The position numbers and the translations under genes are program-made. From positions 8,278,501-8,342,500 of the forward strand of contig NC_060021.1 of assembly GCF_021134715.1 (NCBI RefSeq): 64,000 nucleotides of DNA, written 5' to 3'. The DNA is from Daphnia pulex (Eukaryota > Arthropoda > Branchiopoda > Diplostraca > Daphniidae). Below, piece by piece: positions 13,464-64,000 of this stretch. Numbering within the stretch: position 1 is the first letter of the stretch; each line of letters starts with the position of its first letter. The notes beneath the pieces were generated by a model that was given only the letters and a program-made list of their open reading frames with translations, was not told the origin of the DNA and did not search any database.

Positions 13464-14470
13464 TTATTTGTGCTTGATGTTCTGCTCTAGCGCTTTCTTG
13501 TTGGCATCTCCTCCCCACAGCATGGCAAAAACTTGTCGCTCGTTTTTCAGAGACTCTTCATAAGGTACTGCACGGGCGGTCGCGACGATTTGCTTCAGTG
13601 CGTGAACGATCTCTGGCGCGTGTTTCAATTTAGACTGCAACCACTGTTTAGCCTCTTCGACGGCTTCTGGCAATTCAACAGATTTTGTGATGCCATTCGC
13701 GAGACCCATGACTACAGCTTCCGAAGCCGATATCTGACGTGAGGTTAGTAGCAATTCCAGCGCTCGGTGTTGACCCAAAAGCTGGACTAGTCTCGTGCCA
13801 CCTCCCCATCCGGTGACTACGCCCATTCTTCCTTGAACGAAACCGATTTCCCCTTTTTCAGTGAACAATCGGAAATCACAGGATGTTGCTAGTTCGGCTC
13901 CTCCACCAAGAGCTTTGCCTTGAATTAGGGCCACTGAAATCAAAGGCAACTGGTGCAGGCGTGTCAAAGTGTTGTGCATTAGAGTGGCCATCTTGTAGCC
14001 ATCATCAGGATTAGATATTTGGCGAACGGTATTTAAATCTCCCCCAGAACAAAATGTTTCTCCAACAGAATGTAAAATGATCCCTTTGCCAGCTTTCCAA
14101 TCTTCTAATGTGTTTACTGCATTCCACAGGTCAACCATCATACTACCTACATATAGAACATGAAATACAACAGTTTGTAAATGTTAAAATAAAAAAGATA
14201 TGATTTCAAATTACCACTGAGAGCATTTCGTCTTTCTGGGTGGTTGATTTTTAGAATGGCAAGTCCACTTTCATTGTCTTTCACCAACTCTATCTTCCCT
14301 CCTTCAAATTTTGAGAATTGTTCGGAAATTGTGATGACTGGTGTTTCTGGACCTGCATAGTGATTCACCCATCGCCTCTCTGCATTGAAACTCATGGTGG
14401 GAGAGTAAGGGATTTTCCTTAGTTTTGTGATGCGCAAATTTTGAATGACGCGTTTATAGTGTATGAACAT
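13464..14470 (-). CDS. ECHDC1: Ethylmalonyl-CoA decarboxylase (crotonase fold), two coding exons, 312 aa
   Basis: Coding exons are 14470-14215 and 14146-13464, with a 68 nt intron between them. The joined frame reads NALSG then SMMVDLW across the junction. Crotonase-fold landmarks are HPERRNALSG, the oxyanion-hole segments FCSGGDLNTV and ALGGGAELATSCDFRL, and GVVTGWGGGTRLVQLLG. The C-terminus includes VPYEESLKNERQVFAMLWGG. The pattern and length match animal ECHDC1 (about 300 aa), a cytosolic metabolite-repair enzyme that decarboxylates ethylmalonyl-CoA and, less well, methylmalonyl-CoA made by acetyl-CoA carboxylase side activity. The first in-frame ATG gives a basic leader of about 25 residues; a second Met (SPTMSF) could be the true start. 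A 5' UTR intron is likely (see the separate entry). Confidence 0.93.
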
Positions 14471-14488
14471 TAGGACACAGCGGAAATC

Positions 14489-14700
14489 AACTGTGAAAAA
14501 GAAGATAAAAATGGTTTACATGTATCTTCATCATTCATACAGTTGAACAATATTTGTAAAATTTATTACTATGCTGTCAAAAGATATACTTAATAATACA
14601 ATCTGAAGTAATAGATAGTATATAATCTTACTGGAACGGAAATTTAATCGTATAAAGTTAAAGCCTTAATAAAGGTCTCGTTTCCAGCACTGTGCACTGA
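14489..14700 (-). promoter_or_regulatory. Probable ECHDC1 transcription start and 5' UTR intron
   Basis: On the minus strand an acceptor (TTTTCACAG) falls just above the ATG exon, at 14489-14490. A good donor (CA|GTAAGA) lies at 14631-14630. Upstream of it is a TCAGTG initiator at 14700-14695. This suggests a noncoding first exon of about 65 nt and an intron of about 143 nt. It rests on consensus signals only. Confidence 0.4.
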
Positions 14701-14784
14701 GCACTAGCACTCACTTCGTAATTGTTTGTTTTTGTATACTGCTGCCCTCCATTGAGAGTGACAGGTACTGCACTTGCGGGGGTA

Positions 14785-14898
14785 ACTAAAACTCGGGGAA
14801 TGGAATCGGGGATCGCCATTTTCCCCGAGCTTTAGTGTGTTCAAACAAGGTGACGGCCTGACGGGTAAACAAACAACCAACGACTAAAACTCGGGGAA
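14785..14898. repeat. Three copies of a 16 bp ACTAAARCTCGGGGAA motif, two forming a hairpin
   Basis: The motif occurs at 14785-14800 (+), inverted at 14821-14836 and again direct at 14883-14898. The first two form a 16 bp stem with one mismatch and a 20 nt loop. The group lies immediately outside the left edge of the large palindrome, and I saw no counterpart at the right edge. Confidence 0.75.
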
Positions 14899-14969
14899 CT
14901 TCTTCAGCAACGGTCCATAACTCAAAGTTTCAATCATTGAATTGTTAAATTGTGGTGATCATTTGGAAA

Positions 14970-15143
14970 ATAAGTTCGTTCACGCAAAAGTTTGCTTTTG
15001 TTTCTCGGTGGCCTAACCTGACACCTGTGTTACCCACTGCTGTCCCGTTGCCTCCTATAAACGTGGATAAAACAGCAATCAAACGTCAAATCAAGGAAAT
15101 GCTAGAAACAGCCTTGAGTTTGAGTATTCAGTATGACTATTGA
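14970..15143 (+). pseudogene. 57-codon ORF, left-arm copy with lost start codon
   Basis: This has the same reading frame as the right-arm ORF at 29235-29408, but the codon aligned with the ATG is ATA (14970-14972). An alternative ATG 18 nt upstream is in frame. The product is unrecognised, with a Pro-rich middle (LPTAVPLPPINVDK) and a short predicted helix (KRQIKEMLETALSLS). It may be a remnant of a larger gene rather than a gene in its own right. Confidence 0.3.
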
Positions 15144-15784
15144 AGTTTTTTGCTTAAAACGAGAAAAATAAACAGTCCACAAGGGGATTGGCATTGGTTA
15201 TAGTTCCACGTCAGACTTCAGACAACAAAATATCAGTGTTAAAGAAAAATCAGTGAAAAGATCGTGCAAAAAACGTGTGGAATCAATGAAAGGCTTTTTA
15301 CTTACAGATTCAATAGAGAAAAAAAGTCAAGATTGATAACTTTTAATCTTTTCATTCAACATCTATTACAGCCAATCTCTTACAATGTGAACAGCAAGAT
15401 TACTAAGTGAGACTTAAGCAACTTGCTTTAGTAAAAATAACTTTCTGGCTATTTTAACGAAATCTATTATTTCTCTTTTCAGACTGACATATTTGAACCG
15501 ACATTGACGCGATGATCATTAAAAAAAACTGACGTTCGGGAAGAAATTAGCTTGGTGAGGAAACTCTTGTCATGGAGAAAAGTAATATGTGGCTGTACTC
15601 AAGCCTCCAACAAATGAACTCTTGCTGCAGTTTTAACCAAGACGGTATTTGAAAAGCCCCTTTAGAAAGAGCTATACTATCTGAGGCAGGTGACTCCCAT
15701 GATACAATTATCAAGCAAGTATAAGGTGAATCAAATTCAACTGCCTTATTTCATTTGAAAAGGCTAATACTTCGTTATATTTAG

Positions 15785-16030
15785 GCAAGGACAATTGTAA
15801 TCTGGAACTCGACGAACAGGTCAATGTTGAGAAAGAAGAAGATGACTGCTCAATACAATTAAATCAAAGAAGGACAATACGGAAGCTCTGGTGGAAGCTA
15901 TGAAAGAGTTTGGCGTTGAAGTGGATATCGATTTAATTTAACTAGTGTGAAATCCCAAAGTAGAGCCAGAAGGTCCATCTATCACCGGCACACCAATATC
16001 CAACGGAACTTACTCCACAAGACTGGCATA
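15785..16030 (+). pseudogene. Decayed coding sequence, left arm
   Basis: An acceptor-like ATATTTAG precedes protein-like text in one frame (GKDNCNLELDEQVNVEKEED). The text then continues in another frame as KKDNTEALVEAMKEFGVEVD, interrupted by TAA and TGA, and resumes in that same frame with PKVEPEGPSITGTPISNGTY. The composition looks like a once-coding acidic protein that now carries a frameshift and stops. The family was not recognised. Confidence 0.35.
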
Positions 16031-16303
16031 AGTGTAGTGCCTACTGAAATTAACTTACGAATCATAGTTCCGATGGATTCACTTTCAAGGAGAAAAGCAG
16101 TCGACAGTCCCTATAGGAGGAGAGACACTGTAACTGCCATTTGCTTAGCGATTGAGATTAGCGAAAGTCGTGGATACCATCTGTCAATCAATGCGTCTTG
16201 TCTACCGACCCGGATCCCCCGTGTGTATATCGATCCTCTCGATCCTGGTTGCTTACATCCGCCAAGTTTTTATTGACACTAGCCAGCAAAAAGCTCGCAG
16301 GTA

Positions 16304-16495
16304 AAAGTATACGGTCATGATCTTCATGTTTTTCCTACCGAGAAATCTTTTAGCAAAATGAGATTTGGGTGTCTTTATCTTAATTCTATTCTTAGAAACA
16401 TTCGCGAAGATAACGGAAAAGAGACACCAACACGGGGGAAAGAAACAAAAGGACGCCAGTTCATCCATTCTCACGCTCAAAAGAAGTTCCGTTGA
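16304..16495 (+). other. Exon-like ORF, left arm
   Basis: After an acceptor-like CTCGCAG, the frame KVYGHDLHVFPTEKSFSKMR runs open for 64 codons to TGA at 16493-16495, ending HSHAQKKFR. It is rich in Lys/Arg and has no recognised domain. It could be a terminal exon or a fragment of the decayed sequence just upstream. The same ORF is mirrored at 27883-28074 on the minus strand. Confidence 0.25.
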
Positions 16496-16904
16496 TTACT
16501 GTACCCCAAGCTTGTCTGCTTAACATTTAAGGTAAGACGACGATAGCTCTAAGCCTCTAATAAGATAAACAGCAATGGCTGTGGAAGAACTGAACAAACG
16601 CAAAAGATTCAAATCGCCGTCACTTTTTTTTATAAAGCAGGAACACATTTCTATTACCTACCTTTTGTTCGTTTCTGTCATCCAGCAGTTCCTTACTGTC
16701 TACTAGTTCGTAATCCGAAATACAAAATCGCTTTACAACTGTAAATTGAATTATACTTTGAAGATGAAATAATTAAAAAAAAAATGTCTCCTTTTTTTCT
16801 CATTTCAGGGTTGTGAGTTTGGGACCGGCGAATGTAGTTTTTAAAGTAAAATAAGTCGTCGAAGAACGCTCCGTCAACGTCAATTTTTATTTGCCAATAA
16901 ACAG

Positions 16905-17678
16905 TGCCCGAAGAGTTCATACCGAGACCGCTATTTCATGTGCCTTGGCTTGCAGGATACGAATTAGGTAATCTAAAATTGAGCGAAGATGGTGACGAGA
17001 GTTGCAACGTGGAAGCGGCTCACCTCTGGAAGATGTTTAGCGAAGATGACGTTGAAGTGAAATGCAGTATGTTTCCTCCAAGTGCTGCCAAACGCTCAGA
17101 GTCTGATTGAAAAGTGTTCGAATCCGGTCAATCGGTCTATCCATCTAATTGGTCCATTACTTCCTGGTTGATTTGATTTTCATTTTCACCATCATTTAGA
17201 GATTGACTTAACATTTGCTGTTGCCTTGTACTCTTGTAAATAGTATGTTACAGTGAATAGAAATGCATTCTGAATAACTGGCAGGTTAGCTAACCAACTG
17301 AGTGTTTTCCTTTCAGCAATCCACTGTCCAAGCACTGTTGCCCAGGTGCTGAAACGTCTGGTTGCAGACAAGGCACATGAACCAATATCACTGCCTTTTC
17401 TTCAGGTGTAGAAGTTGGACTGGTGAAGTTGTGTCGTTGTTGAAGTGCGTTTGATTTCAGCTGGGGTCGTTACCGACTTCGCAACCAGATTCTTTGCCAT
17501 TATTTGCAATCGGAATAATCAGTTTAGGTAAGTCAACGTTTACTAGACATTTCCATGTAAACTTTCGCTCTATGTCGTAATTTGTCGTAAAATGTCGCAT
17601 TGCCCAATGTCAGATGTTACGTTTGCTTCTGTGTTTGTACTTCTTTTTTTTCCAGTCGAGTTTACGGTGCAAATTTAG
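16905..17678 (+). CDS. Unrecognised four-exon gene, left-arm copy (partial)
   Basis: Exons: 16905-17066 (acceptor AACAG, donor GTATGT), 17317-17405 (acceptor TTTCAG), 17461-17527 (acceptor TTTCAG, donor GTAAGT), 17656-17678 (acceptor TTCCAG) ending in TAG. The phases agree at all three joins and give about 111 residues: PEEFIPRPLFHVPWLAGYEL, then EAAHLWKMFSEDDVEVKC, then TIHCPSTVAQVLKRLVADKA, then LGSLPTSQPDSLPLFAIGI. The first exon starts in phase, so an upstream exon ending in one base is required; if that base is A, it would make a split ATG. No domain or family was recognised. Consistent splicing over four exons argues for a real gene or a recently active one. Confidence 0.5.
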
Positions 17679-18180
17679 CCATAAGCCACGGTTTGATTTT
17701 GGAAGTGATGAAGTATTTCTAAGCCATTCGACCAAGCTTAATCGAAAGTGAACAATTCTAAGGCATGTAAGTTAATCGTTAGAGTTTTGACTTTTCGAAA
17801 GATCCATTTTTTAATCTACACCAATTTATTTTGTGAAAGCATGCCGAAGATCTTTTGCCTTTCTCATCCACGTGATCGCTGCCGTGTCATGAAGATGCTT
17901 CTTTGAGAGGGTCTCTACTATATTGTAACTTGCAAGACAAAAAAGTGATGAGAACAGGAAATCTGAATTGCTTATAATGTACTTTTAAGATAAATCAATT
18001 AGGTTAGTATATTGCTTACATTTTAGTCTACGTATGTGTGCTAAAGAGTCGTACACTCGTAAGTTACTTTAGAATGTTTAAAATGAAATTTAGGTGTATA
18101 TTTTCAACATGTTCTAACTGATGCAGTGTTTATTTATCATTTTTCAATTACCATTTTAGAGTTCAACCTGCAGACGGGCC

Positions 18181-18521
18181 GGCCAGTTTGCATGTCCTTT
18201 ACGCTTGAAGGTCGCGGTGAACATTACGTGTAAAACTGTCAATGCGGTGGTGTAGAGGTTGGGTGAGAAAGGTACGTGTTTCATCATTATCAAGCAGGTA
18301 TAATAGCCGCAAGGCTCAGCCATTTGATATTCATTTTGATATTTGTTGTTGTAGACCCATCCCCAGCAACGCCAACCTAAAGAAGAAAAGGCCAGTTTGC
18401 ATTTTCTTTATGCTCGTGTCACAGAGATCATTACATAAAACGTATCATGCGACGGCGGAGAGGTTGGGTGAGAAAGGTACGTGTTTCATCATTATCAAAC
18501 AGGTACAATACCCGCAAGGCT
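18181..18521 (+). repeat. Two-copy tandem repeat upstream of the Tyr-repeat gene (left arm)
   Basis: Units 18181-18316 and 18390-18521 both begin GGCCAGTTTGCAT and end near CCGCAAGGCT. Both contain GGTTGGGTGAGAAAGGTACG followed by TGTTTCATCATTATCAA. They differ by scattered substitutions and small indels. The position directly upstream of a TATA promoter suggests a duplicated upstream segment. The mirrored copy is at about 25857-26197. Confidence 0.75.
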
Positions 18522-18548
18522 TAAGAGGTGAGGGTGATCAAAAAATCG

Positions 18549-18586
18549 TATATAAAGGAGAGAGGAAAAGGCCAGAGACATCAGTC
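18549..18586 (+). promoter_or_regulatory. TATA box and initiator of left-arm Tyr-repeat gene A
   Basis: TATATAAAG at 18549-18557 is followed about 32 bp later by TCAGTC at 18581-18586, the arthropod initiator. A noncoding exon then runs to a donor near 18675. A 110 nt intron ends with TGTCTAG at 18784, 16 nt before the ATG at 18800. Confidence 0.6.
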
Positions 18587-18799
18587 GAGTGAGCATCTCC
18601 GACACGGCAACAACTGCTGTGCCCTATCTGTCACCATCTGCCTTCTTCACCGTATTGCCAGTTCGCATCCGTGGGTAAAATATTCTGTCTTTACATGGAG
18701 TTTTCTATTAATGTCAGTTATTTTCTGTTTGTTAATATGCAATTTATTATTGAATATTAATGTTTGAATTTGTTTACTGTCTAGTTAATAAGGCGTCGT

Positions 18800-19640
18800 A
18801 TGCTGTTGGGTGTTGTATCGTTGATTGGTGGGTCGACCACTGGTGTAATGATGTCTCCTGGGTATGGCGGATACCAAACCCGCAAACCGCGACGCCGCCG
18901 CCGCCTTACTACCCAAAACTTACGCAACGACCAGTTACTGCACCGAGGTCTAAAAGCACTACACTACTAAGGCACCGGAGTTTTATATCACAACTTTTGC
19001 TGCCCCGAGCCACTACACTGACGTCCTGAAGTATTACTCTGCCCCGAGTTACTACACCTCCAAGGCGACGGAGCATGACTACGCATGCTGCCTCATCCTA
19101 CTACACCGAGGCTCCCAAGTATTACTCTGTTCTCAGCTACTTATTGCACCGATTTTCCTAAATACTACTCTGTTCCCAGCTGCTACACCGAGGCTCCCGC
19201 TGATTACTCCACCAAAACGGTCGAATACTACACCGAAGCGGTAAAGTACTACTCTGCCCCGATCTACACAACCACAACTGAGGCGGCCAAGTATTACGCA
19301 GTCCCGACTTACTACACAGAAGCTGCTCTTTCGTACTACGTTGAACAGAAATACTACACTGATCCTCCAGCTCACTACACCACTACCTAGTACCTACGCT
19401 ACACCGCAGCCCCCAAGTACTACACCTAAGAAGCCGCCTGTTACCCAACAACGTATGCTGCCTTAGTTACTACACCGAGGCTCCTAAGTACTACATCACT
19501 AAGGCACCGGAATTCTAAACGTCTATGTATGCTGCCCCTGCCTACTACACCGAGGCCCCGCATTACAACAACAGTGAAGTGCTCAAGTACTGCACTACAA
19601 CCTAGGCTGCCCCGAGCTACTACACCTACGTCCCGAAGTA
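18800..19640 (+). pseudogene. Tyr/Thr-rich repeat protein gene A, left arm, broken
   Basis: The ATG at 18800 opens MLLGVVSLIGGSTTGV, a likely signal peptide. Extra bases in the CGCAAACCGCGACGCCG stretch, compared with copy B, shift the frame. The repeat units that follow (forms of YYTEAPKYYT, YYTTKAPE, TTTYAAPSYYT) are spread over several frames, with TAG and TAA inside. A 101-codon open piece at 19085-19390 still shows the YYT periodicity. Intact relatives would be secreted, low-complexity Tyr-rich proteins of cuticle or secretion type; the function is not known to me. Its promoter appears intact although the coding region is not. Confidence 0.7.
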
Positions 19641-19863
19641 TTACTGTGCGTAAGAGGAGTCGTCAAAAAAAAAAGAAGTCGTGCCCGAACTGCAGTGCCC
19701 TATCTGTCACCAACCGATTCCTCATCGTATAACCGATTCGCATTTATGGGTAAATATTCTTATTTTTACATTGAGTTTGAGTTTTTATCTATTTGTTGAT
19801 ATGCCTGTTAATATTTAATGTTAATGTTTTTATTTGTTTACTGTCTAGTTAATAAGGCGTCGT

Positions 19864-20665
19864 ATGTGGTTGGGTGTTGTATCGTTGATGGCTGGGTCGA
19901 CCGCTGGTGTAACGATGTCTCCTTGGTATGGCGGAAACCAAACCGCAACGCCGCCGCCTTACTACACAACAACAACTTACCCAACGACCAGTTCCTGCAC
20001 CGAGGTCTTCAAGTACTACACCACTAAAGCACCGGAGTTTTATGCTATAACTTACGCTGCCCCGAGCCACTACACTGACGCCCTGAAGTATTACTCTGCC
20101 CTGAGTTACTACACCATCTAGGCGATGGAGTACTACATGACTACGTATGCTGCTCATCCTATTACACCGAGACTTCTAAGTATTACTCTGTTCTCATCTA
20201 CTTACCGCACCTATTTTCCTAAATACTACTCTGTTCCCAGCTGCTACACCGAGGCTCCCGCTGATTACTCCACCAAAACGGTCGAGTACTACACCGAAGC
20301 GGCAAAATACTTCTCAGCCCCGATCTACACAACCACAACTGAGGCGGCCAAGTATCACGCAGTCCCGACTTGCTACACAAAAGCTGCCCTTTCGTGCTAC
20401 GTTGAACAGAAATACTACACTGATGCTCCAGTCTACTACACCATGACCTACGCCACACCTAGCTACAACACGGCAGCCCCCAAGTACTACACCGAAGGCG
20501 CCGCCTATTACACGACTACGTACGCTGCCTAGTTTACAACATCGAGGAATTTAAGTATTACCCTGCTCCAAACTACTACCAAACTGAGGTTCATGTGTAT
20601 TATACATCAGCAATTCTCCCGACTATGTCACCACTACTTACGCTGCTCCGACCTATACACCGAAG
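19864..20665 (+). pseudogene. Tyr/Thr-rich repeat protein gene B, left arm, broken
   Basis: A tandem duplicate of copy A. The ATG at 19864 opens MWLGVVSLMAGSTAGVTMSP and runs 85 codons of YYT-type repeat before TAG at 20119-20121. A second open stretch, at 20125-20532, resumes with a frameshift near 20155 and ends in TAG. Further repeat units continue to about 20665 with more breaks. The sequence upstream (19690-19860) matches the untranslated exon and intron of copy A, but its TATA box is gone and only a poly-A stretch remains. Confidence 0.7.
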
Positions 20666-22037
20666 TTCTGAAGTATTTCTCTTGTGTTGAAAGATTGCTG
20701 AAATACAAGGTTGATTGATAAATCACAAGTGCATGTCTCTATTTTCTCCTTAAGTACCTTAACTCCTGCTGATAATTGCATGATATGAGAAAATATTTCT
20801 GAGTGCTATGTACAAATAATTGATCTTGCAAAATACAAAAATAAAAATTCAAACTCATGTTTTACATTCCAATAATATTTAACTCTTTTCCTTTTTATTT
20901 TTTTCCATCATCAAAATCCAAAGTCCAACAACCAATATTTCTTTAAAATACAAAGTTCACCATCCATTATTTTCTGCTAAGTCCAGACTTTTGTTTTTGA
21001 AAAAAAATTTAAAAAAATCCCCCTTACACGAAGTTTTAAAAATTTTTATAGCGAAAAAATTCAATTCAAATATTTTGCATACAAAATTTATTTTCATAAT
21101 ATTCACATACATTTATTTTTCATGTGGCCCCCAGGGGGGGGGGCCTGTCGCTTTCTCTACCGCGATAATAACATGATGCAAGTTTTATGCAAGTTATTAT
21201 TTGTTTGGCGCAGAAAGCTGGTTTTATCTAGCAGTTCTCGACTGTTTCAAACCTGACATTGATCAGGTTGCCTCAGTCGTATACTGCATGATTGAATGAA
21301 AACTCAAAAGACAACACATCAAACTTTTAACGCAGCAACACAAAATATCACTGGCAGAGCAATTTCATATGGCATGGATGAAAACGACAACACACAAATT
21401 TTGAAGTCAGGAACCCAGATGGAACAGCTCAGCTGCAACAGCACAGCAACTTCTGGATTACACTGCAACCGCATACTGCATACAAAGGCTCAATCTGTCT
21501 TTGTCACACCTTTCACCATTTGGCTGCAACAAGGTAACCACCAGCGTTGAAGAAGTTTTGTTATACCTGTTTAAGAAAAGAAAATTATTGTCGAGAAACA
21601 GAAATTTGTACACATGCATACTCATTATAACAAAAGAATACAAAGAGTAACAGAAAACTACGCAGACCAACAGAATAACTTTGATATCTGATTCAAACTT
21701 TCATTAGAAGCAGAGCAAATCGGTCTACTCTCTAGTCATGTGAACTAAATCTGTGGTACTTTAGCAAGACATTTGATCAAAATAATTACTTTTTTCTGTT
21801 GCATGTGATGAGACGTACGCCTAAGAACAGCGGCGAGACACACGAGGCACGCCATTTAGGAAATGTACAGGCACTTCCCAAGTCTGAGTTGAATGAATTG
21901 GTTTCTACATGCTAAATCACCTGTAAATTTTCACATCAACATTTTACATTCAATAATAATAGGAAATTTAACAATAAATACCTTTTAATTTTCATCGTGA
22001 GAGAGACGTGACAACCAACAACCCACTTCTGCTGCAT

Positions 22038-22340
22038 CTGGGAACAAAATGGCCGCTAAGCGTCTCTGAAAACACTCGCGCTACCTGGTGGACATCATTC
22101 AGATACAGCCACTTGTTCCTGTTACAAATGACAACAATACAATACAATAGAACTCCAACAATTTTTATTCTTAATTATTTGCGTGCCTAATTATTATTGT
22201 CGCGTAGTGGAGTTCTACTGTCGGGCACTCTGGAACAGGAGTCTAATGGCTGTCAATAGGTGGCTGAATGATGTCCACCACCAGGTAGCGCGAGTGGGCC
22301 AGTGTCTTCAGGAATGCTTAGCGGCCATTTTGTTCCCAGA
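22038..22340. repeat. Diverged centre of the palindrome
   Basis: Within about 150 bp of the symmetry point the arms stop matching closely. Aligned inward, GCGTCTCTGAAAACAC faces GCATTCCTGAAGACAC, a 9 bp segment (TGGCCCACT type) and a GTG triplet are present on one side only, and the innermost A/T-rich stretch aligns poorly. There is essentially no unique spacer, only an old, imperfect inverted repeat. Confidence 0.8.
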
Positions 22341-23712
22341 CGCAGCAGAAGTGGGTTGTTGGTTGTCACGTCTCCCTCACGATGAAAATTAAAAGGTATT
22401 TATTGTTAAATTTCCTATTATTATTGAATGTAAAATGTTGATGTGAAAATTTACAGGTGATTTAGCATGTAGAAACCAATTCATTCAACTCAGACTTGGG
22501 AAGTGCCTGTACATTTCCTAAATGGCGTGCCTCGTGTGTCTCGCCGCTGTTCTTAGGCGTACGTCTCATCACATGCAACAGAAAAAAGTAATTATTTTGA
22601 TCAAATGTCTTGCTAAAGTACCACAGATTTAGTTCACATGACTAGAGAGTAGACCGATTTGCTCTGCTTCTAATGAAAGTTTGAATCAGATATCAAAGTT
22701 ATTCTGTTGGTCTGCGTAGTTTTCTGTTACTCTTTGTATTCTTTTGTTATAATGAGTATGCATGTGTACAAATTTCTGTTTCTCGACAATAATTTTCTTT
22801 TCTTAAACAGGTATAACAAAACTTCTTCAACGCTGGTGGTTACCTTGTTGCAGCCAAATGGTGAAAGGTGTGACAAAGACAGATTGAGCCTTTGTATGCA
22901 GTATGCGGTTGCAGTGTAATCCAGAAGTTGCTGTGCTGTTGCAGCTGAGCTGTTCCATCTGGGTTCCTGACTTCAAAATTTGTGTGTTGTCGTTTTCATC
23001 CATGCCATATGAAATTGCTCTGCCAGTGATATTTTGTGTTGCTGCGTTAAAAGTTTGATGTGTTGTCTTTTGAGTTTTCATTCAATCATGCAGTATACGA
23101 CTGAGGCAACCTGATCAATGTCAGGTTTGAAACAGTCGAGAACTGCTAGATAAAACCAGCTTTCTGCGCCAAACAAATAATAACTTGCATAAAACTTGCA
23201 TCATGTTATTATCGCGGTAGAGAAAGCGACAGGCCCCCCCCCCCTGGGGGCCACATGAAAAATAAATGTATGTGAATATTATGAAAATAAATTTTGTATG
23301 CAAAATATTTGAATTGAATTTTTTCGCTATAAAAATTTTTAAAACTTCGTGTAAGGGGGATTTTTTTAAATTTTTTTTCAAAAACAAAAGTCTGGACTTA
23401 GCAGAAAATAATGGATGGTGAACTTTGTATTTTAAAGAAATATTGGTTGTTGGACTTTGGATTTTGATGATGGAAAAAAATAAAAAGGAAAAGAGTTAAA
23501 TATTATTGGAATGTAAAACATGAGTTTGAATTTTTATTTTTGTATTTTGCAAGATCAATTATTTGTACATAGCACTCAGAAATATTTTCTCATATCATGC
23601 AATTATCAGCAGGAGTTAAGGTACTTAAGGAGAAAATAGAGACATGCACTTGTGATTTATCAATCAACCTTGTATTTCAGCAATCTTTCAACACAAGAGA
23701 AATACTTCAGAA

Positions 23713-24514
23713 CTTCGGTGTATAGGTCGGAGCAGCGTAAGTAGTGGTGACATAGTCGGGAGAATTGCTGATGTATAATACACATGAACCTCAGTTTGGT
23801 AGTAGTTTGGAGCAGGGTAATACTTAAATTCCTCGATGTTGTAAACTAGGCAGCGTACGTAGTCGTGTAATAGGCGGCGCCTTCGGTGTAGTACTTGGGG
23901 GCTGCCGTGTTGTAGCTAGGTGTGGCGTAGGTCATGGTGTAGTAGACTGGAGCATCAGTGTAGTATTTCTGTTCAACGTAGCACGAAAGGGCAGCTTTTG
24001 TGTAGCAAGTCGGGACTGCGTGATACTTGGCCGCCTCAGTTGTGGTTGTGTAGATCGGGGCTGAGAAGTATTTTGCCGCTTCGGTGTAGTACTCGACCGT
24101 TTTGGTGGAGTAATCAGCGGGAGCCTCGGTGTAGCAGCTGGGAACAGAGTAGTATTTAGGAAAATAGGTGCGGTAAGTAGATGAGAACAGAGTAATACTT
24201 AGAAGTCTCGGTGTAATAGGATGAGCAGCATACGTAGTCATGTAGTACTCCATCGCCTAGATGGTGTAGTAACTCAGGGCAGAGTAATACTTCAGGGCGT
24301 CAGTGTAGTGGCTCGGGGCAGCGTAAGTTATAGCATAAAACTCCGGTGCTTTAGTGGTGTAGTACTTGAAGACCTCGGTGCAGGAACTGGTCGTTGGGTA
24401 AGTTGTTGTTGTGTAGTAAGGCGGCGGCGTTGCGGTTTGGTTTCCGCCATACCAAGGAGACATCGTTACACCAGCGGTCGACCCAGCCATCAACGATACA
24501 ACACCCAACCACAT
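23713..24514 (-). pseudogene. Tyr/Thr-rich repeat protein gene B, right arm, broken
   Basis: Mirror of 19864-20665 with the same premature TAG, the same second open stretch (24253-23846) and the same terminal breaks. Confidence 0.7.
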
Positions 24515-24737
24515 ACGACGCCTTATTAACTAGACAGTAAACAAATAAAAACATTAACATTAAATATTAACAGGCATATCAACAAATAGATAAAAACTCA
24601 AACTCAATGTAAAAATAAGAATATTTACCCATAAATGCGAATCGGTTATACGATGAGGAATCGGTTGGTGACAGATAGGGCACTGCAGTTCGGGCACGAC
24701 TTCTTTTTTTTTTGACGACTCCTCTTACGCACAGTAA

Positions 24738-25578
24738 TACTTCGGGACGTAGGTGTAGTAGCTCGGGGCAGCCTAGGTTGTAGTGCAGTACTTGAGCACT
24801 TCACTGTTGTTGTAATGCGGGGCCTCGGTGTAGTAGGCAGGGGCAGCATACATAGACGTTTAGAATTCCGGTGCCTTAGTGATGTAGTACTTAGGAGCCT
24901 CGGTGTAGTAACTAAGGCAGCATACGTTGTTGGGTAACAGGCGGCTTCTTAGGTGTAGTACTTGGGGGCTGCGGTGTAGCGTAGGTACTAGGTAGTGGTG
25001 TAGTGAGCTGGAGGATCAGTGTAGTATTTCTGTTCAACGTAGTACGAAAGAGCAGCTTCTGTGTAGTAAGTCGGGACTGCGTAATACTTGGCCGCCTCAG
25101 TTGTGGTTGTGTAGATCGGGGCAGAGTAGTACTTTACCGCTTCGGTGTAGTATTCGACCGTTTTGGTGGAGTAATCAGCGGGAGCCTCGGTGTAGCAGCT
25201 GGGAACAGAGTAGTATTTAGGAAAATCGGTGCAATAAGTAGCTGAGAACAGAGTAATACTTGGGAGCCTCGGTGTAGTAGGATGAGGCAGCATGCGTAGT
25301 CATGCTCCGTCGCCTTGGAGGTGTAGTAACTCGGGGCAGAGTAATACTTCAGGACGTCAGTGTAGTGGCTCGGGGCAGCAAAAGTTGTGATATAAAACTC
25401 CGGTGCCTTAGTAGTGTAGTGCTTTTAGACCTCGGTGCAGTAACTGGTCGTTGCGTAAGTTTTGGGTAGTAAGGCGGCGGCGGCGTCGCGGTTTGCGGGT
25501 TTGGTATCCGCCATACCCAGGAGACATCATTACACCAGTGGTCGACCCACCAATCAACGATACAACACCCAACAGCAT
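24738..25578 (-). pseudogene. Tyr/Thr-rich repeat protein gene A, right arm, broken
   Basis: Mirror of 18800-19640, sharing its frameshift near the start and its internal stops. The open 101-codon YYT stretch is at 25293-24988. Confidence 0.7.
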
Positions 25579-25790
25579 ACGACGCCTTATTAACTAGACA
25601 GTAAACAAATTCAAACATTAATATTCAATAATAAATTGCATATTAACAAACAGAAAATAACTGACATTAATAGAAAACTCCATGTAAAGACAGAATATTT
25701 ACCCACGGATGCGAACTGGCAATACGGTGAAGAAGGCAGATGGTGACAGATAGGGCACAGCAGTTGTTGCCGTGTCGGAGATGCTCACTC

Positions 25791-25827
25791 GACTGATGTC
25801 TCTGGCCTTTTCTCTCTCCTTTATATA
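25791..25827 (-). promoter_or_regulatory. TATA box and initiator of right-arm Tyr-repeat gene A
   Basis: On the minus strand, TATATAAAG lies at 25827-25819 and TCAGTC at 25796-25791. This is the mirror of the left-arm promoter, intact apart from a one-base length change between the two elements. Confidence 0.6.
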
Positions 25828-25856
25828 CGATTTTTTGATCACCCTCACCTCTTAAG

Positions 25857-26197
25857 CCTTGCGGGTATTGTACCTGTTTGATAATGATGAAACACGTACC
25901 TTTCTCACCCAACCTCTCCGCCGTCGCATGATACGTTTTATGTAATGATCTCTGTGACCTTCGAGCATAAAGAAAATGCAAACTGGCCTTTTCTTCTTTA
26001 GGTTGGCGTTGCTGGGGATGGGTCTACAACAACAAATATCAAAATGAATATCAAATGGCTGAGCCTTGCGGCTATTATACCTGCTTGATAATGATGAAAC
26101 ACGTACCTTTCTCACCCAACCTCTACACCACCGCATTGACAGTTTTACACGTAATGTTCACCGCGACCTTCAAGCGTAAAGGACATGCAAACTGGCC
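25857..26197 (-). repeat. Two-copy tandem repeat upstream of the Tyr-repeat gene (right arm)
   Basis: Mirror of 18181-18521. A two-base length difference from the left arm (GCTCGAAGGTC versus GCTCGTGTC) lies inside the unit nearer the promoter. Confidence 0.7.
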
Positions 26198-26699
26198 GGC
26201 CCGTCTGCAGGTTGAACTCTAAAATGGTAATTGAAAAATGATAAATAAACACTGCATCAGTTAGAACATGTTGAAAATATACACCTAAATTTCATTTTAA
26301 ACATTCTAAAGTAACTTACGAGTGTACGACTCTTTAGCACACATACGTAGACTAAAATGTAAGCAATATACTAACCTAATTGATTTATCTTAAAAGTACA
26401 TTATAAGCAATTCAGATTTCCTGTTCTCATCACTTTTTTGTCTTGCAAGTTACAATATAGTAGAGACCCTCTCAAAGAAGCATCTTCATGACACGGCAGC
26501 GATCACGTGGATGAGAAAGGCAAAAGATCTTCGGCATGCTTTCACAAAATAAATTGGTGTAGATTAAAAAATGGATCTTTCGAAAAGTCAAAACTCTAAC
26601 GATTAACTTACATGCCTTAGAATTGTTCACTTTCGATTAAGCTTGGTCGAATGGCTTAGAAATACTTCATCACTTCCAAAATCAAACCGTGGCTTATGG

Positions 26700-27473
26700 C
26701 TAAATTTGCACCGTAAACTCGACTGGAAAAAAAAGAAGTACAAACACAGAAGCAAACGTAACATCTGACATTGGGCAATGCGACATTTTACGACAAATTA
26801 CGACATAGAGCGAAAGTTTACATGGAAATGTCTAGTAAACGTTGACTTACCTAAACTGATTATTCCGATTGCAAATAATGGCAAAGAATCTGGTTGCGAA
26901 GTCGGTAACGACCCCAGCTGAAATCAAACGCACTTCAACAACGACACAACTTCACCAGTCCAACTTCTACACCTGAAGAAAAGGCAGTGATATTGGTTCA
27001 TGTGCCTTGTCTGCAACCAGACGTTTCAGCACCTGGGCAACAGTGCTTGGACAGTGGATTGCTGAAAGGAAAACACTCAGTTGGTTAGCTAACCTGCCAG
27101 TTATTCAGAATGCATTTCTATTCACTGTAACATACTATTTACAAGAGTACAAGGCAACAGCAAATGTTAAGTCAATCTCTAAATGATGGTGAAAATGAAA
27201 ATCAAATCAACCAGGAAGTAATGGACCAATTAGATGGATAGACCGATTGACCGGATTCGAACACTTTTCAATCAGACTCTGAGCGTTTGGCAGCACTTGG
27301 AGGAAACATACTGCATTTCACTTCAACGTCATCTTCGCTAAACATCTTCCAGAGGTGAGCCGCTTCCACGTTGCAACTCTCGTCACCATCTTCGCTCAAT
27401 TTTAGATTACCTAATTCGTATCCTGCAAGCCAAGGCACATGAAATAGCGGTCTCGGTATGAACTCTTCGGGCA
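26700..27473 (-). CDS. Unrecognised four-exon gene, right-arm copy (partial)
   Basis: Mirror image of 16905-17678, with the same ORF, the same donor and acceptor sequences and the same stop codon. With the left copy it forms a divergently placed identical pair inside the palindrome. Which copy is expressed cannot be told from sequence. Confidence 0.5.
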
Positions 27474-28347
27474 CTGTTTATTGGCAAATAAAAATTGACG
27501 TTGACGGAGCGTTCTTCGACGACTTATTTTACTTTAAAAACTACATTCGCCGGTCCCAAACTCACAACCCTGAAATGAGAAAAAAAGGAGACATTTTTTT
27601 TTTAATTATTTCATCTTCAAAGTATAATTCAATTTACAGTTGTAAAGCGATTTTGTATTTCGGATTACGAACTAGTAGACAGTAAGGAACTGCTGGATGA
27701 CAGAAACGAACAAAAGGTAGGTAATAGAAATGTGTTCCTGCTTTATAAAAAAAAGTGACGGCGATTTGAATCTTTTGCGTTTGTTCAGTTCTTCCACAGC
27801 CATTGCTGTTTATCTTATTAGAGGCTTAGAGCTATCGTCGTCTTTTCTTAAATGTTAAGCAGACAAGCTTGGGGTACAGTAATCAACGGAACTTCTTTTG
27901 AGCGTGAGAATGGATGAACTGGCGTCCTTTTGTTTCTTTCCCCCGTGTTGGTGTCTCTTTTCCGTTATCTTCGCGAATGTTTCTAAGAATAGAATTAAGA
28001 TAAAGACACCCAAATCTCATTTTGCTAAAAGATTTCTCGGTAGGAAAAACATGAAGATCATGACCGTATACTTTTACCTGCGAGCTTTTTGCTGGCTAGT
28101 GTCAATAAAAACTTGGCGGATGTAAGCAACCAGGATCGAGAGGATCGATATACACACGGGGGATCCGGGTCGGTAGACAAGACGCATTGATTGACAGATG
28201 GTATCCACGACTTTCGCTAATCTCAATCGCTAAGCAAATGGCAGTTACAGTGTCTCTCCTCCTATAGGGACTGTCGACTGCTTTTCTCCTTGAAAGTGAA
28301 TCCATCGGAACTATGATTCGTAAGTTAATTTCAGTAGGCACTACACT

Positions 28348-28593
28348 TATGCCAGTCTTGTGGAGTAAGTTCCGTTGGATATTGGTGTGCCGGTGATAGA
28401 TGGACCTTCTGGCTCTACTTTGGGATTTCACACTAGTTAAATTAAATCGATATCCACTTCAACGCCAAACTCTTTCATAGCTTCCACCAGAGCTTCCGTA
28501 TTGTCCTTCTTTGATTTAATTGTATTGAGCAGTCATCTTCTTCTTTCTCAACATTGACCTGTTCGTCGAGTTCCAGATTACAATTGTCCTTGC
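28348..28593 (-). pseudogene. Decayed coding sequence, right arm (mirror copy)
   Basis: Mirror of 15785-16030 with the same frameshift and stop codons as far as compared. The shared damage means the decay came before the inverted duplication, or was spread by later homogenisation. Confidence 0.35.
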
Positions 28594-29234
28594 CTAAATA
28601 TAACGAAGTATTAGCCTTTTCAAATGAAATAAGGCAGTTGAATTTGATTCACCTTATACTTGCTTGATAATTGTATCATGGGAGTCACCTGCCTCAGATA
28701 GTATAGCTCTTTCTAAAGGGGCTTTTCAAATACCGTCTTGGTTAAAACTGCAGCAAGAGTTCATTTGTTGGAGGCTTGAGTACAGCCACATATTACTTTT
28801 CTCCATGACAAGAGTTTCCTCACCAAGCTAATTTCTTCCCGAACGTCAGTTTTTTTTAATGATCATCGCGTCAATGTCGGTTCAAATATGTCAGTCTGAA
28901 AAGAGAAATAATAGATTTCGTTAAAATAGCCAGAAAGTTATTTTTACTAAAGCAAGTTGCTTAAGTCTCACTTAGTAATCTTGCTGTTCACATTGTAAGA
29001 GATTGGCTGTAATAGATGTTGAATGAAAAGATTAAAAGTTATCAATCTTGACTTTTTTTCTCTATTGAATCTGTAAGTAAAAAGCCTTTCATTGATTCCA
29101 CACGTTTTTTGCACGATCTTTTCACTGATTTTTCTTTAACACTGATATTTTGTTGTCTGAAGTCTGACGTGGAACTATAACCAATGCCAATCCCCTTGTG
29201 GACTGTTTATTTTTCTCGTTTTAAGCAAAAAACT

Positions 29235-29408
29235 TCAATAGTCATACTGAATACTCAAACTCAAGGCTGTTTCTAGCATTTCCTTGATTTGACGTTTGAT
29301 TGCTGTTTTATCCACGTTTATAGGAGGCAACGGGACAGCAGTGGGTAACACAGGTGTCAGGTTAGGCCACCGAGAAACAAAAGCAAACTTTTGCGTGAAC
29401 GAACTCAT
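29235..29408 (-). CDS. Small unrecognised ORF, right-arm copy with ATG intact (57 aa)
   Basis: The ORF begins MSSFTQKFAF and ends LSIQYDY. It has no signal peptide or membrane segment and no recognised domain. It is conserved between the arms except for the start codon and a few outer-edge changes. It could be a real micro-protein, one exon of a longer gene, or chance. Confidence 0.3.
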   Translation of the reverse strand: MSSFTQKFAFVSRWPNLTPVLPTAVPLPPINVDKTAIKRQIKEMLETALSLSIQYDY

Positions 29409-29455
29409 TTTCCAAATGTTCACCACAATTTAACAATTCAACGATTGAAACTTTG

Positions 29456-32307
29456 CAACAATATGCCTAAAGCTAGCCTCACCATTTGAGAAATACATAA
29501 CAATGCAGAATCCCAGAATGTAGAGAGTAGAGTTATAGACCTTTGCAGACGAACATTCGTGGATTGGAAGCGGTGTTGCCACTGTTGCCCTTAATAACCA
29601 TAATGTTGCCATAAATTAATGACTGTTGATTGTGTAAAAAAAAATTTCTTCGCTCTTCGCGCAAGAAAATTTAATTCCGGTGGGCGCCGAGAAAATCCCC
29701 TTTTTACATAAAATTTTCTCGCGCGTTCTCATTCTTTAAGTAGGCACTGTATACCTTACAGCCTCCATCAAGTAGTGTTCATGTCATGAGTGATGTGGCT
29801 AGATCTGCAAAATTTCGAAGAACCAGGAAAAGGGCGATGATCCCGTTTTCCTTTCGATCTCTGCGACGTGCACACTTATACGTGTGTGCACTGTGCAGAT
29901 AACTTTTATGTTTGTCTATATTTGATCAGAATCATTGCAGCGCTATAAATAACTCTGTGTCTAGCTAGGGATGAGCTGTACGTCTCTGTCTTCTACTAGG
30001 TTGTACTGTACCCTCTATACTAGTATTAATAATGCACATATTTCTTTGTGCAGAAACTTGGCTTTCGTTTTTGATTATCTTTAAAACTTAAGGCATCTTA
30101 CAACAACTGCGTTATAAATTATAACCAGAGTATCCACCGTTATGCGCACAGTTGACGACGACATTGAAGAAAGATATTAAACTGTACATTTAAACGAATA
30201 TCACTAAATCTCAGTGATGTGCCTTTCGAGCTGTTCGTCTAGATGGAATACAACTTCACGGAACTGCGAAGAATAAATAAATGGGTGAACGATGGAGCCG
30301 GCCAAGTGGCTACCTACTGCCACCTAGCGCTTTACCCTCTTACTTCATCACCTCCTATATGATCACGCCATTCTTTCCCATTGCGTCATCGGTTCCTTGT
30401 TGTTACCTATTATAGGCCTGAAGAGAAAAAAACGTATTCAAATGTGTTGAGAAGAAGGAACATTTTTTCCGTGCCCTTTTTGGATGTACTAGAGATTGCA
30501 TCAACCATGATCGGAAGTTATTTCCTGCTCAACAGTATTTCACATCGTTTCCGCTATTTCCTTATATATGTATCACAATATTACTTCGCCAAATGGAAAA
30601 CAAATCGCAGCAGAATAACCTTCAACAATGTCACCGTCTCCAGTGAGCCTTCGGACGTCTATCACATCCTTTTTACCTGATTGTCACCACCGACGAACGT
30701 AAATAGGGCTCTTTAACTGGAATTAGAAAAATAAATTTCTCTGAATAATAAGTAGCTAATATAGTTTCATCCAAAAGTTGCACAAGTTAGCAAACTATAG
30801 CGATCGATAGTAGGAATAAGTTGTCCAATGCGTATAGTCATCATCTGCATTCAAGGACGACGACGACTCAAGTGATTGACGACAGCAACAAATGATGAAG
30901 TGGGTGTTTGAATGATTGACGTTTCCTGTCTTAATTGACCGCCCACTTTGCACACGCCAAAACTATCGCCAAAAAATCTAATCTGCTGCCCGTCACCTCC
31001 TCCTCACAGTGCCTGCAGTGTGTGTGCGTATGTGTGTGTGTGTGTGTATCGCGTCCTTGTATAATTATAGATATTGTCCAACACGGGATGCTATTGAAGG
31101 TATTGCCTAAAAATTCCAATGTGCAATCATGTATAGTGTCACTGTACCACCGACGTGTTGGCCAAGACCCGTCACAGCAGGTTTCTTAGCCTTTTTTTCA
31201 CGTGATTGGCGTATGATCCATCAGTCGCATTAGACGTGTCATGCATCCGATGGCCAGCTATATCATATGTAGTAGGGGATGGAAAATCCGTTGTATCAGA
31301 CAGGAGCTGATAGAACAGGGGATCAGTTTATGCAGCAGTATGCATAGGTTGCCTCTCTCTATCTTTGCTCGGATGAAATGTCTTGGCAACGTGGACAAAT
31401 CCTTAGGATCAAACTTGCAGCAGGAAAGCGGCCCAGATATACACACGCGAGTATAGCGTTTATCCTTCTTCTTATATCCACATCCCTTTCACCTTTTTTT
31501 CATTTTCCAATGCTGCTGGGCAGAGTGTCTTTTTCCTGTATAGCCCAGCTGCATGGCCCACCCCTTAACCTAAGGAACTAAAAATCAACCCAACTGTCTG
31601 ACTGACTGACTGAAGAATGCGTGTCCGTGGCTTGCCAACTTGATATCTCCTCAATCCTCATTCATATTATTCGTCCTATAGTTAAAAAGAGTTAGATAGA
31701 GTGAAGGTTTTCATCAATTTATAGTATACCTCACCAGATGTTTGTGTTTTTTTGTTGTTGTTGTTCGACCGCCCATCTCGGCTGCATAGCTTGTAAACAC
31801 ACAGAAGCCTGCAGCCCACTATGGCAACAAAACGGAGTTTATGACAACGGCTGGCTAGTTTGAACGACAACCAAGTCGAATATATCAGCTAGAAAAGAAA
31901 TGGTTTGTGACAACCGTCAGCACAAAATGAAAAAGAAGAATCCCTTTTCCAAATTGAGTCAACGATCCTTAAGGGACGAGTTCTCATGTTGAGAAGGGCC
32001 AGCATCGCCTCCGCTCCGCGGGATAAATGATCCGCGCCTCGTCTGGACGGCGAGTCGGAGACGCCATCGTGAGTCGTTGGCGGATTGGACGATTTTTCAT
32101 CTGGCAGCAGCGGCAGGCAGGTTCCCTTTATTATTATTATTATTACACCTGGTGGACAGTGGATTATGTAGGAATTTCGGTTCAGGCAAAAACATAGGAA
32201 AAAACATCGGGAGCTGGCAAAAATAGCCTGACAACAGAGCAGAAAATGAGACTTTGAATTCAACTTAAATGGTCGTTGTTGGATCAAATTTGTCTAACTT
32301 TTTTTTC
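29456..32307. other. Gene-poor region right of the palindrome
   Basis: No supported gene. It contains an imperfect inverted repeat (29658-29673 against 29709-29725, core GAGAAAATTTTA), a GT microsatellite (about 31019-31047) and an ACTG tetranucleotide run (about 31590-31610). The ORF at 30381-30680 has no domain features and is not supported. Confidence 0.5.
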
Positions 32308-63400: not shown

Positions 63401-63952
63401 AGTTGAAGAAGTTGGAAGCTCGAAGTTAAATAAAGCATTAAAGCCATGAACTATTTCTGAAACAACATGGGTGGGTCTATCAAGTGACTGGACCTCCTTT
63501 ATCTTTACGCTGCCAATGAAATCTGTTGGGTCACAGATCTCATGGCGGATGCACGCAGTCAGGAAAACAGTAACACAGGCCACATGTAGATTTTCTGAGC
63601 TAGGTTTTTGAAATAAATACTCGGAGCACCACAGTTCTTCAGATGGAACCAATTGTGCCAAAATGCTGGCTTGAAGATGAGATTTCAGTTTTAGGTGTGC
63701 CCATTTCTCTTCTTCTGATGGATCAATAAGAATCTTCACACAAGACTTGACTAGACCATTTTGGCTCATGTTTGTTTCCTTGCATTTTATGGAACATGAA
63801 AACCCTAGATAATATTGTATGTTAATGCAGTTACTTATAGAAAATCTAAAGAATTTCACATTACCATTTGGGATGATTTTGTCACGAGAGTAATCATACA
63901 GATCTCCAAGGGCAACTGAACGCCCCAATGTTGGAAGATTAATTTTCTCCAT
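60409..63952 (-). CDS. Large protein with stonustoxin-like N-terminal regions and an AIG1/septin-like G domain (1,136 aa)
   Basis: Exons: 63952-63865, 63804-61786, 61712-60409. The first intron is 60 nt and in frame, so read-through is also open. The N-terminus (LPTLGRSVALGDLYDYSRD) matches the start of stonustoxin-like (SNTX-type) proteins. A later stretch (about residues 430-560, including EWLVTRQQELFLLKSLLEN) resembles their thioredoxin-like region. Near residue 630 is a P-loop (GAAGCGKSAVVNG), then a switch-like TTSVTSFHIHY, a G3 motif (IIDTPGYGD, formed across the second join) and LLVTFSNG at the G4 position. The C-terminal third has a Cys cluster (CRNCSFSC to CLCPG) and helical segments. 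Such G-domain proteins are multigene families in fish and invertebrates, thought to act in the cytoplasm, perhaps in defence; no toxin role is implied. The ATG is 48 nt from the window end, so upstream noncoding exons may be outside. Confidence 0.8.
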
Positions 63953-64000
63953 TCCTTTAAAAAATGTACATAAATTAATACGGTGAATATATACGTAGGT

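What the first reader, a model, noticed from the sequence alone, without database searches (positions are those of the whole stretch)
14923..29455. A 14.5 kb palindrome with near-identical 7.2 kb gene-bearing arms
Coordinates pair as x and 44378-x over the whole interval, with only a handful of differences seen by eye in some 7 kb. The flanks are unrelated and no transposon ends or target-site duplication appear at the borders. Very large palindromes with near-identical arms are best known from sex chromosomes and are kept similar by arm-to-arm gene conversion. One in an arthropod holding genes would be notable. The alternative is an assembly artefact, but the arms differ by real substitutions and one differs in a start codon.
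Basis: seen in the sequence. Interest (0 to 1): 0.88.

Follow-up and report, generated by a model that had tools for sequence, protein, structure and literature searches.

The report
Dispersed Daphnia palindromes with converting arms
A water-flea chromosome carries a 14.5 kb mirror-image DNA repeat that belongs to a family of such repeats spread over many chromosomes, in which the two halves of each copy seem to keep overwriting one another and so stay nearly identical, although the genes inside look dead.

Summary
The palindrome is real: 14923-29455, centre near 22189; about 7.0 kb of each arm differs by 7 events, with further differences at the outer border and in a degenerate centre. The genome is Daphnia pulex. 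It is one of a family: of 71 clusters of the arm peptide (150 of 919 candidates scored), 27, on ten contigs, carry both strands, all in the same order. In the seven palindromes read in full, arm cores are 98.8-100% alike within a locus; between loci they are 88.5-98.1% alike, and all seven arm pairs are sisters in a tree. Differences crowd at arm ends; four loci share one exact junction; one spacer is flipped against shared flanks. Best reading: an old palindrome, copied around the genome, kept symmetric by arm-to-arm gene conversion with occasional crossover. The arms hold apparently broken, near-neutrally evolving gene pieces; 15 pieces scanned reached no Pfam cut-off. The right border is ancestral, the left derived (10 of 10 repeats). 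How the family spread is open; no reads or second assembly were available.

The parts
14923..22072 (+). left arm of the palindrome
22305..29455 (-). right arm of the palindrome
22002..22375 (.). degenerate centre, about 73% self-complementary; most of the ~1.1 kb spacer found in other family members is missing here
18163..22001 (+). family-wide arm core, left copy (start is where several paralogous loci begin to match)
22377..26215 (-). family-wide arm core, right copy (mirror coordinates, within a few bases because of indels)
17177..18162 (+). 'A' flank, left copy: present on both arms here and at C5:9.09, on one side only at C5:9.29, 9.71, 9.87
26216..27201 (-). 'A' flank, right copy (mirror coordinates)
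14923..17176 (+). outer arm sequence, left copy: in both arms here, not matched at other palindromes; 14923 to about 16500 is an old dispersed repeat
27202..29455 (-). outer arm sequence, right copy (mirror coordinates)
29456..29488 (-). continuation of the dispersed repeat beyond the right border; absent at the left border, so the right junction is ancestral and the left (14922/14923) derived
18612..19494 (+). Tyr-rich repeat gene piece, copy 1, left arm (apparently broken)
19688..20561 (+). Tyr-rich repeat gene piece, copy 2, left arm; holds the 135-aa frame 20125-20532
23817..24690 (-). Tyr-rich repeat gene piece, copy 2, right arm; holds the 135-aa frame 23846-24253
24884..25765 (-). Tyr-rich repeat gene piece, copy 1, right arm (apparently broken)
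22207..22223 (+). 17-base motif that also occurs near the start of a one-armed unit (L068); possible fold-back site

Best explanation
The window holds one member of a family of dispersed palindromes in the Daphnia pulex genome. Two inverted arms (a family-wide core of about 3.8 kb, extended by further sequence at some loci) flank a short spacer. SHOWN from sequence: arms within a locus are nearly identical while loci differ by about 2-12%; arm differences are concentrated at arm ends; all seven fully read palindromes have sister arms although four of them share one exact centre junction; one spacer is inverted relative to shared flanks; and both arms here carry outer sequence that other palindromes do not match. 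INFERRED: strand exchange between the arms, within a chromatid or between sisters, repeatedly copies one arm onto the other (gene conversion) and is sometimes resolved as a crossover, which flips the spacer. Tracts that run past the old arm end would lengthen the arms outward (here right flank copied to the left, ending at 14923) or inward (C5:9.71). No working gene was found that would explain selection for symmetry, so homogenisation is probably a mechanical result of the inverted arrangement. The palindrome probably spread as a unit; whether by duplication or transposition is not shown.
For: Within-locus core identity 98.8-100% in 7 of 7 palindromes against 88.5-98.1% between loci; 7 of 7 arm pairs sisters at 100/100; exact shared junction with a 12-bp filler in C5:9.09, 9.29, 9.71, 9.87 and a roughly continuous match to it at 10 loci on 5 contigs, three of these at only 73-76%; edge-loaded differences; spacer flipped in 9.87 relative to 9.29 and 9.71 by flanks A/B; spacer end doubled at both arm ends in 9.71; 27 of 71 clusters with both strands, 27 of 27 in the same order, against 2 of 38 in a control repeat.
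Against: One assembly and no reads. The flip rests on one locus of three. Edge statistics are partly built in, because local alignments end where similarity fades, and the outer edges of 9.29, 9.71 and 9.87 lie in a short tandem repeat. 9.71 and the window are the weakest for the edge pattern (8 of 15 and 9 of 16 events). The 9.29 and 9.71 spacers are 99.4% alike while their arms are about 94% alike, which simple within-locus conversion does not predict. Centres of 11.24 and the window differ from the shared junction, so more than one origin is possible.
Confidence: 0.72

Rival explanations
1. Each palindrome was made separately and fairly recently by fold-back copying of a pre-existing single arm plus spacer; arms are alike because each inversion is young.
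For: One-armed units exist: of 27 spacers examined, 9 have an arm only at one particular end and 3 only at the other. The window centre and 11.24 have junctions unlike the shared one, and a short motif is present near a possible fold-back point. Outer arm sequence differs from locus to locus.
Against: Four loci share the exact junction and filler and yet their arms group by locus. Young inversions predict evenly spread differences, not edges several percent diverged beside almost identical interiors.
Confidence: 0.15
2. The family is a giant foldback (long inverted-repeat) DNA transposon; arm identity reflects recent insertion rather than conversion.
For: Same unit on ten contigs; a shared junction on five contigs; one-armed copies could be truncated insertions.
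Against: No common outer terminus or target duplication among the seven loci read; no transposase domain in the 15 pieces scanned, though the spacer was not scanned against Pfam; edge-loaded differences and spacer flip need arm recombination anyway.
Confidence: 0.2
3. Assembly or polishing artefact: fold-back or haplotype joins, or reads from two arms averaged so that interiors look identical.
For: Single assembly with no read evidence; polishing could homogenise near-identical interiors while anchored edges keep differences; spacer orientation in long inverted repeats can be misassembled.
Against: A fold-back join predicts a perfect centre, but the centre is about 27% diverged. A haplotype join predicts even differences, not edge-loaded ones. 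At 9.09 the inner edge has 58 events in the last 0.7 kb and the adjoining interior almost none; divergence of that order would not confuse reads. Outer sequences and spacers differ between loci.
Confidence: 0.08
4. The palindromes are hairpin-RNA loci: transcripts fold and give small RNAs that silence related genes, and symmetry is selected.
For: Arms carry gene pieces related to many other copies in the genome (150 of 919 candidates scored). Drosophila hairpin-RNA loci are a precedent (PMC10292708, PMC10317233: listing and start of abstract only).
Against: No RNA data. Arms of 4-7 kb with spacers up to 1.2 kb are long for such loci (recalled). No Rfam match in 14000-30500. Identity also covers outer sequence unrelated to the gene pieces.
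Confidence: 0.05

Closest known systems
Primate Y-chromosome palindromes with arm-to-arm gene conversion (P6: PMC3723533, passages)
   Same: Large inverted arms over 99% alike, a spacer, concerted evolution, rare inversions.
   Different: Here apparently not on a sex chromosome, arms of 4-7 kb, one related family at many sites, no working genes found, arm ends that seem to grow locus by locus.
C. elegans inverted gene pairs (PMC1803023: abstract, one results subsection and discussion)
   Same: Inverted structure better kept than sequence; kb-scale arms (2207 bp at 99.7% in one case) on ordinary chromosomes.
   Different: Those hold paralogous genes at fixed loci compared between species; here broken gene pieces at many dispersed loci compared within one genome.
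Palindromes of Adineta vaga and Folsomia candida (PMC7953838 and PMC5490193, passages)
   Same: Inverted duplications in invertebrate genomes with parthenogenesis.
   Different: Those are blocks of several genes found by collinearity, and in F. candida Ks spread widely rather than looking concerted; D. pulex was not screened in the survey.
Galileo and other foldback transposons (PMC4168063, passages)
   Same: Dispersed units dominated by long inverted repeats around a short centre.
   Different: Galileo has 7-8 bp target duplications and, in the passage read, a copy with 1575-bp inverted repeats described as second longest; here no common terminus or target duplication was found and arms are 4-7 kb.

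Membership tests
Gene-converting palindromes (primate Y type) | Large inverted arms of 99% identity or more around a spacer or centre | tested here: met
   Window arms: 7 events over ~7.0 kb; cores of six others 98.8-100%
Gene-converting palindromes (primate Y type) | Arms more alike within a locus than to related copies (concerted evolution) | tested here: met
   7 of 7 arm pairs sisters at 100/100; related copies are other loci of one genome, not orthologues of other species
Gene-converting palindromes (primate Y type) | Occasional inversion by arm crossover | tested here: met
   One spacer of three flipped relative to shared flanks; not checked with reads
Gene-converting palindromes (primate Y type) | Working genes in the arms | tested here: not met
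   Broken-looking pieces, dN/dS 0.57 and 1.1, no Pfam match among 15 pieces; weak constraint on the 135-aa frame not excluded
Gene-converting palindromes (primate Y type) | On a sex chromosome | not testable with these tools
   Environmental sex in Daphnia is recalled
Foldback / long-TIR DNA transposon | Same outer terminus in all copies | tested here: not met
   Outer arm ends differ among the seven loci; later arm growth could have hidden a terminus
Foldback / long-TIR DNA transposon | Target-site duplication | tested here: inconclusive
   None seen at the arm ends printed; true insertion ends not known
Foldback / long-TIR DNA transposon | Transposase in the element or an autonomous relative | tested here: inconclusive
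   None among 15 window pieces; the spacer and relatives were not scanned against Pfam
C. elegans-type maintained inverted gene pairs | Intact paralogous gene pair in the arms | tested here: not met
C. elegans-type maintained inverted gene pairs | Inverted structure conserved between species | not testable with these tools
   No other Daphnia genome was available
Hairpin-RNA loci | Small RNAs from the arms | not testable with these tools
   No RNA data

The most novel reading that the evidence does not exclude
D. pulex carries a self-perpetuating class of palindrome. A single ancestral palindrome spread as a unit to at least ten sites on five chromosomes (27 both-strand loci on ten are candidates). 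At its sites arm-to-arm recombination keeps the arms identical, flips the centre, and extends the arms outward into new flanking DNA and inward into the spacer, with no gene under selection. Palindromy itself would be the heritable, growing unit, outside any sex chromosome.
Probability: 0.4. Interest if true: 0.8.

Novelty: new variant of a known kind. Interest (0 to 1): 0.62.

Why it matters
Arm-to-arm conversion is best known from sex chromosomes, where it is often explained as protecting genes that lack a meiotic partner. Related palindromes at many sites on ordinary chromosomes of a laboratory animal, with broken-looking genes inside, would suggest that conversion and arm growth need no gene-protecting selection. 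They would also give replicated, marker-bearing loci for measuring conversion rate, tract length, inversion rate and GC bias, in sexual and asexual clones of one species and in mutation-accumulation lines.

Tried and rejected
Fold-back or haplotype artefact: not the main reading, because the centre is diverged and differences crowd at edges, but kept as a rival since no reads were available. Working genes in the arms: not supported. Simple transposon insertion: no common terminus. RNA family: no Rfam match in 14000-30500. An independent Daphnia record in viral contigs: four stretches matched a pattern but none was a relative, and a 25-base pattern had no match (the tool says records near the window's genome may be left out). 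Spacer peptide search: one 35-aa hypothetical hit. Single-strand fold of the centre (z -20.6) only restates that it is a degenerate palindrome. tRNAs: none in the window.

Rows dropped or not examined: 27 both-strand clusters were found, but both arms were read for 7 (the window and six others); the other 20 rest on coordinates and, for some, one arm. In one search two partial arms (C5:8.04 right, C7:11.20 left) were dropped before the matrix and tree because they covered under 2.5 kb of the query; C5:7.92, C4:1.44, C12:9.40, C5:9.97, C5:8.04 and C7:11.20 enter with one arm each. Genome searches score only the best candidates (32 of 777, 150 of 919, 40 of 188, 40 of 177, 40 of 178), so counts are lower bounds and 'none seen' may be a miss. 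In the control (59 rows) the window's own pair fell outside the 12 kb clustering limit. The ten dispersed repeats are the ten distinct fetched places that reach the terminus, five from the left-border and five from the right-border search; unfetched places were not compared.

Papers: searches. None of the listings showed a report of this family in D. pulex; this covers only the held open-access library and those terms.
Full report
WHAT IS THERE. Self-comparison of the window gives one dominant inverted match, 14923-29455, pairing x with 44378-x. The arm alignment has three zones: 3 substitutions in the outermost 50 bp; 7 events over about 7.0 kb of interior, the longest identical run 2456 bp; and a centre, 22002-22375, that still pairs with itself at about 73%. 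So the centre is a decayed palindrome and not a perfect fold-back.

WHERE IT COMES FROM. The window is C5:8278501-8342500 of a 133,188,837-base, 13-contig genome. Protein hits carry Daphnia pulex names on contigs of 10,745,562 and 9,193,997 bases, the lengths of C12 and C4 here; a third named hit lies on a contig of 11,979,496 bases, close to but not equal to C5 (11,977,500). That this is the D. pulex reference assembly, and that Daphnia sex is environmental, is recalled.

IT IS A FAMILY. Searching the own genome with 16480-21950 returned paralogous copies arranged as inverted pairs around a short centre (32 of 777 candidates scored). With the 135-aa arm peptide, 150 of 919 candidates were scored. 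They form 71 clusters; 27, on ten contigs, have both strands, and 27 of 27 run plus then minus; 44 have one strand. A control with another dispersed repeat (59 rows) gave 2 of 38 clusters with both strands. Of 27 spacer copies examined, 12 have arms on both sides, 9 only at the 1131 end, 3 only at the other end and 3 had none seen.

CONCERTED ARMS. Both arms could be read for seven palindromes: the window and C5:9.09, 9.29, 9.71, 9.87, 11.24 and C2:1.21. Core identity within a locus is 98.8-100%; between the 13 loci compared it is 88.5-98.1%. In an IQ-TREE tree of 20 arms all seven pairs are sisters with 100/100 support. C5:9.09, 9.29, 9.71 and 9.87 share one exact left junction, including a 12-bp filler, and a roughly continuous match to the junction region is found at ten loci on five contigs, three of them at only 73-76% (40 of 178 candidates scored). 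The four at least descend from one palindrome, yet their arms group by locus: the arms were homogenised after the copies separated.

EDGE PATTERN. Arm differences in the outer and inner 10% of the arm are 9 of 16 (window), 11 of 12 (9.87), 8 of 15 (9.71), 19 of 20 (11.24), 14 of 16 (C2:1.21) and 43 of 44 (9.29); at 9.09, 89 of 91 lie in the first 1/12 or last 2/12. The p-values are descriptive, because local alignments end where similarity fades. In 9.29, 9.71 and 9.87 the outer edge lies in a short tandem repeat and is weak evidence. The cleanest cases are the window, 9.09, and the inner edges of 9.29, 11.24 and C2:1.21; 9.71 and 9.87 show no inner-edge excess. At 9.09 the last 0.7 kb before the spacer has 58 events, after which the interior has almost none, a step that reads would not confuse.

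CROSSOVER AND ARM GROWTH. Flank types A and B are each homologous across 9.29, 9.71 and 9.87, while A and B share only up to about 200 bp. Reading B to A, the spacer has one orientation in 9.29 and 9.71 and the opposite in 9.87, as expected from a crossover between arms. In 9.71 the first 68 bp of the spacer stand in inverted copies at both ends, so those arms have grown inward. In the window both arms run on through A flank and then through sequence (14923-17176 and its mirror) that no scored match at another palindrome covers and that the fetched 9.09 locus lacks; 9.09 in turn has about 1 kb of symmetric outer sequence that does not match the window. So arms appear to grow outward locus by locus.

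POLARITY AT THE WINDOW BORDERS. The outer border lies within the end of an old repeat scattered through the genome. In 10 of 10 fetched copies compared, the sequence continues more as on the right side than as on the left, and every copy scores higher against the right version. The right border is thus the original junction, and the left border, 14922/14923, marks where copying stopped.

GENES. Each arm carries two tandem copies of a Tyr-rich repeat gene piece. In the 16 stretches examined the motif-bearing frames are short, the longest 233 aa, and shift between readings; introns are not excluded for every break. Among 13 loci pooled dN/dS is 0.57 for the 135-aa frame and 1.1 for the N-terminal piece, with differences nearly even over codon positions. 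None of 15 window arm or centre pieces reached a Pfam cut-off. The frame of about 130 aa that stays open in many copies leaves weak constraint on that piece possible. No Rfam family matches 14000-30500.

MECHANISM. The evidence fits repeated arm-to-arm gene conversion with occasional crossover, plus extension of tracts across arm ends. How copies reached other chromosomes is not shown. A long-TIR transposon lacks a common terminus here; separate fold-back inversions do not explain the edges or the shared junction, but may explain the centres of 11.24 and the window. One fact stands unexplained: the 9.29 and 9.71 spacers are 99.4% alike while their arms are about 94% alike, perhaps an exchange between loci.

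WHAT IS KNOWN. P6 on the human Y shows conversion tracts of kilobases and rare inversions (PMC3723533, passages). C. elegans has inverted gene pairs whose structure is better kept than sequence (PMC1803023: abstract, one results subsection and discussion). A survey of parthenogenetic animals counted 19 palindromes in A. vaga and 15 or 16 (table or text) in F. candida but could not screen D. pulex for lack of an annotation (PMC7953838, passages); the F. candida palindromes did not look concerted (PMC5490193, passages). Nine searches listed no report of this family.

LIMITS.

Noticed in passing
window 39118-47066 (+): Two long open frames (894 and 1622 aa) made of tandem immunoglobulin I-set domains, like a giant muscle protein (the comparison to muscle proteins is recalled).
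   Followed up: partly
window 13467-14183 (-): Enoyl-CoA hydratase-like frame (ECH_1, E 2.1e-33) about 0.7 kb outside the left palindrome border.
   Followed up: no
G000:C6:3526118 (+) and 3537699 (-): Two copies of part of the outer dispersed repeat in inverted order 11.6 kb apart with equal scores; could be another palindrome.
   Followed up: no
C5:9.29 and C5:9.71 spacers (L065/L064, L053/L056): Spacers 99.4% identical although the arms of the two loci are about 94% identical; may be exchange between loci.
   Followed up: partly
G000 C8:13344189, C12:8319032, C11:1007326: Spacer-like sequence at 75-77% identity, matching spacer positions 16-1099; these looked like older relatives of the spacer, arms not checked.
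   Followed up: no
G000 C4, 1.26-6.1 Mb: Of the 44 one-stranded clusters of the arm peptide many lie on C4, where only one both-strand cluster was found, so C4 may hold mainly one-armed units.
   Followed up: no
window 61775-64000 (-): 742-aa open frame running off the window with only sub-threshold matches, among them P-loop ATPase families.
   Followed up: no
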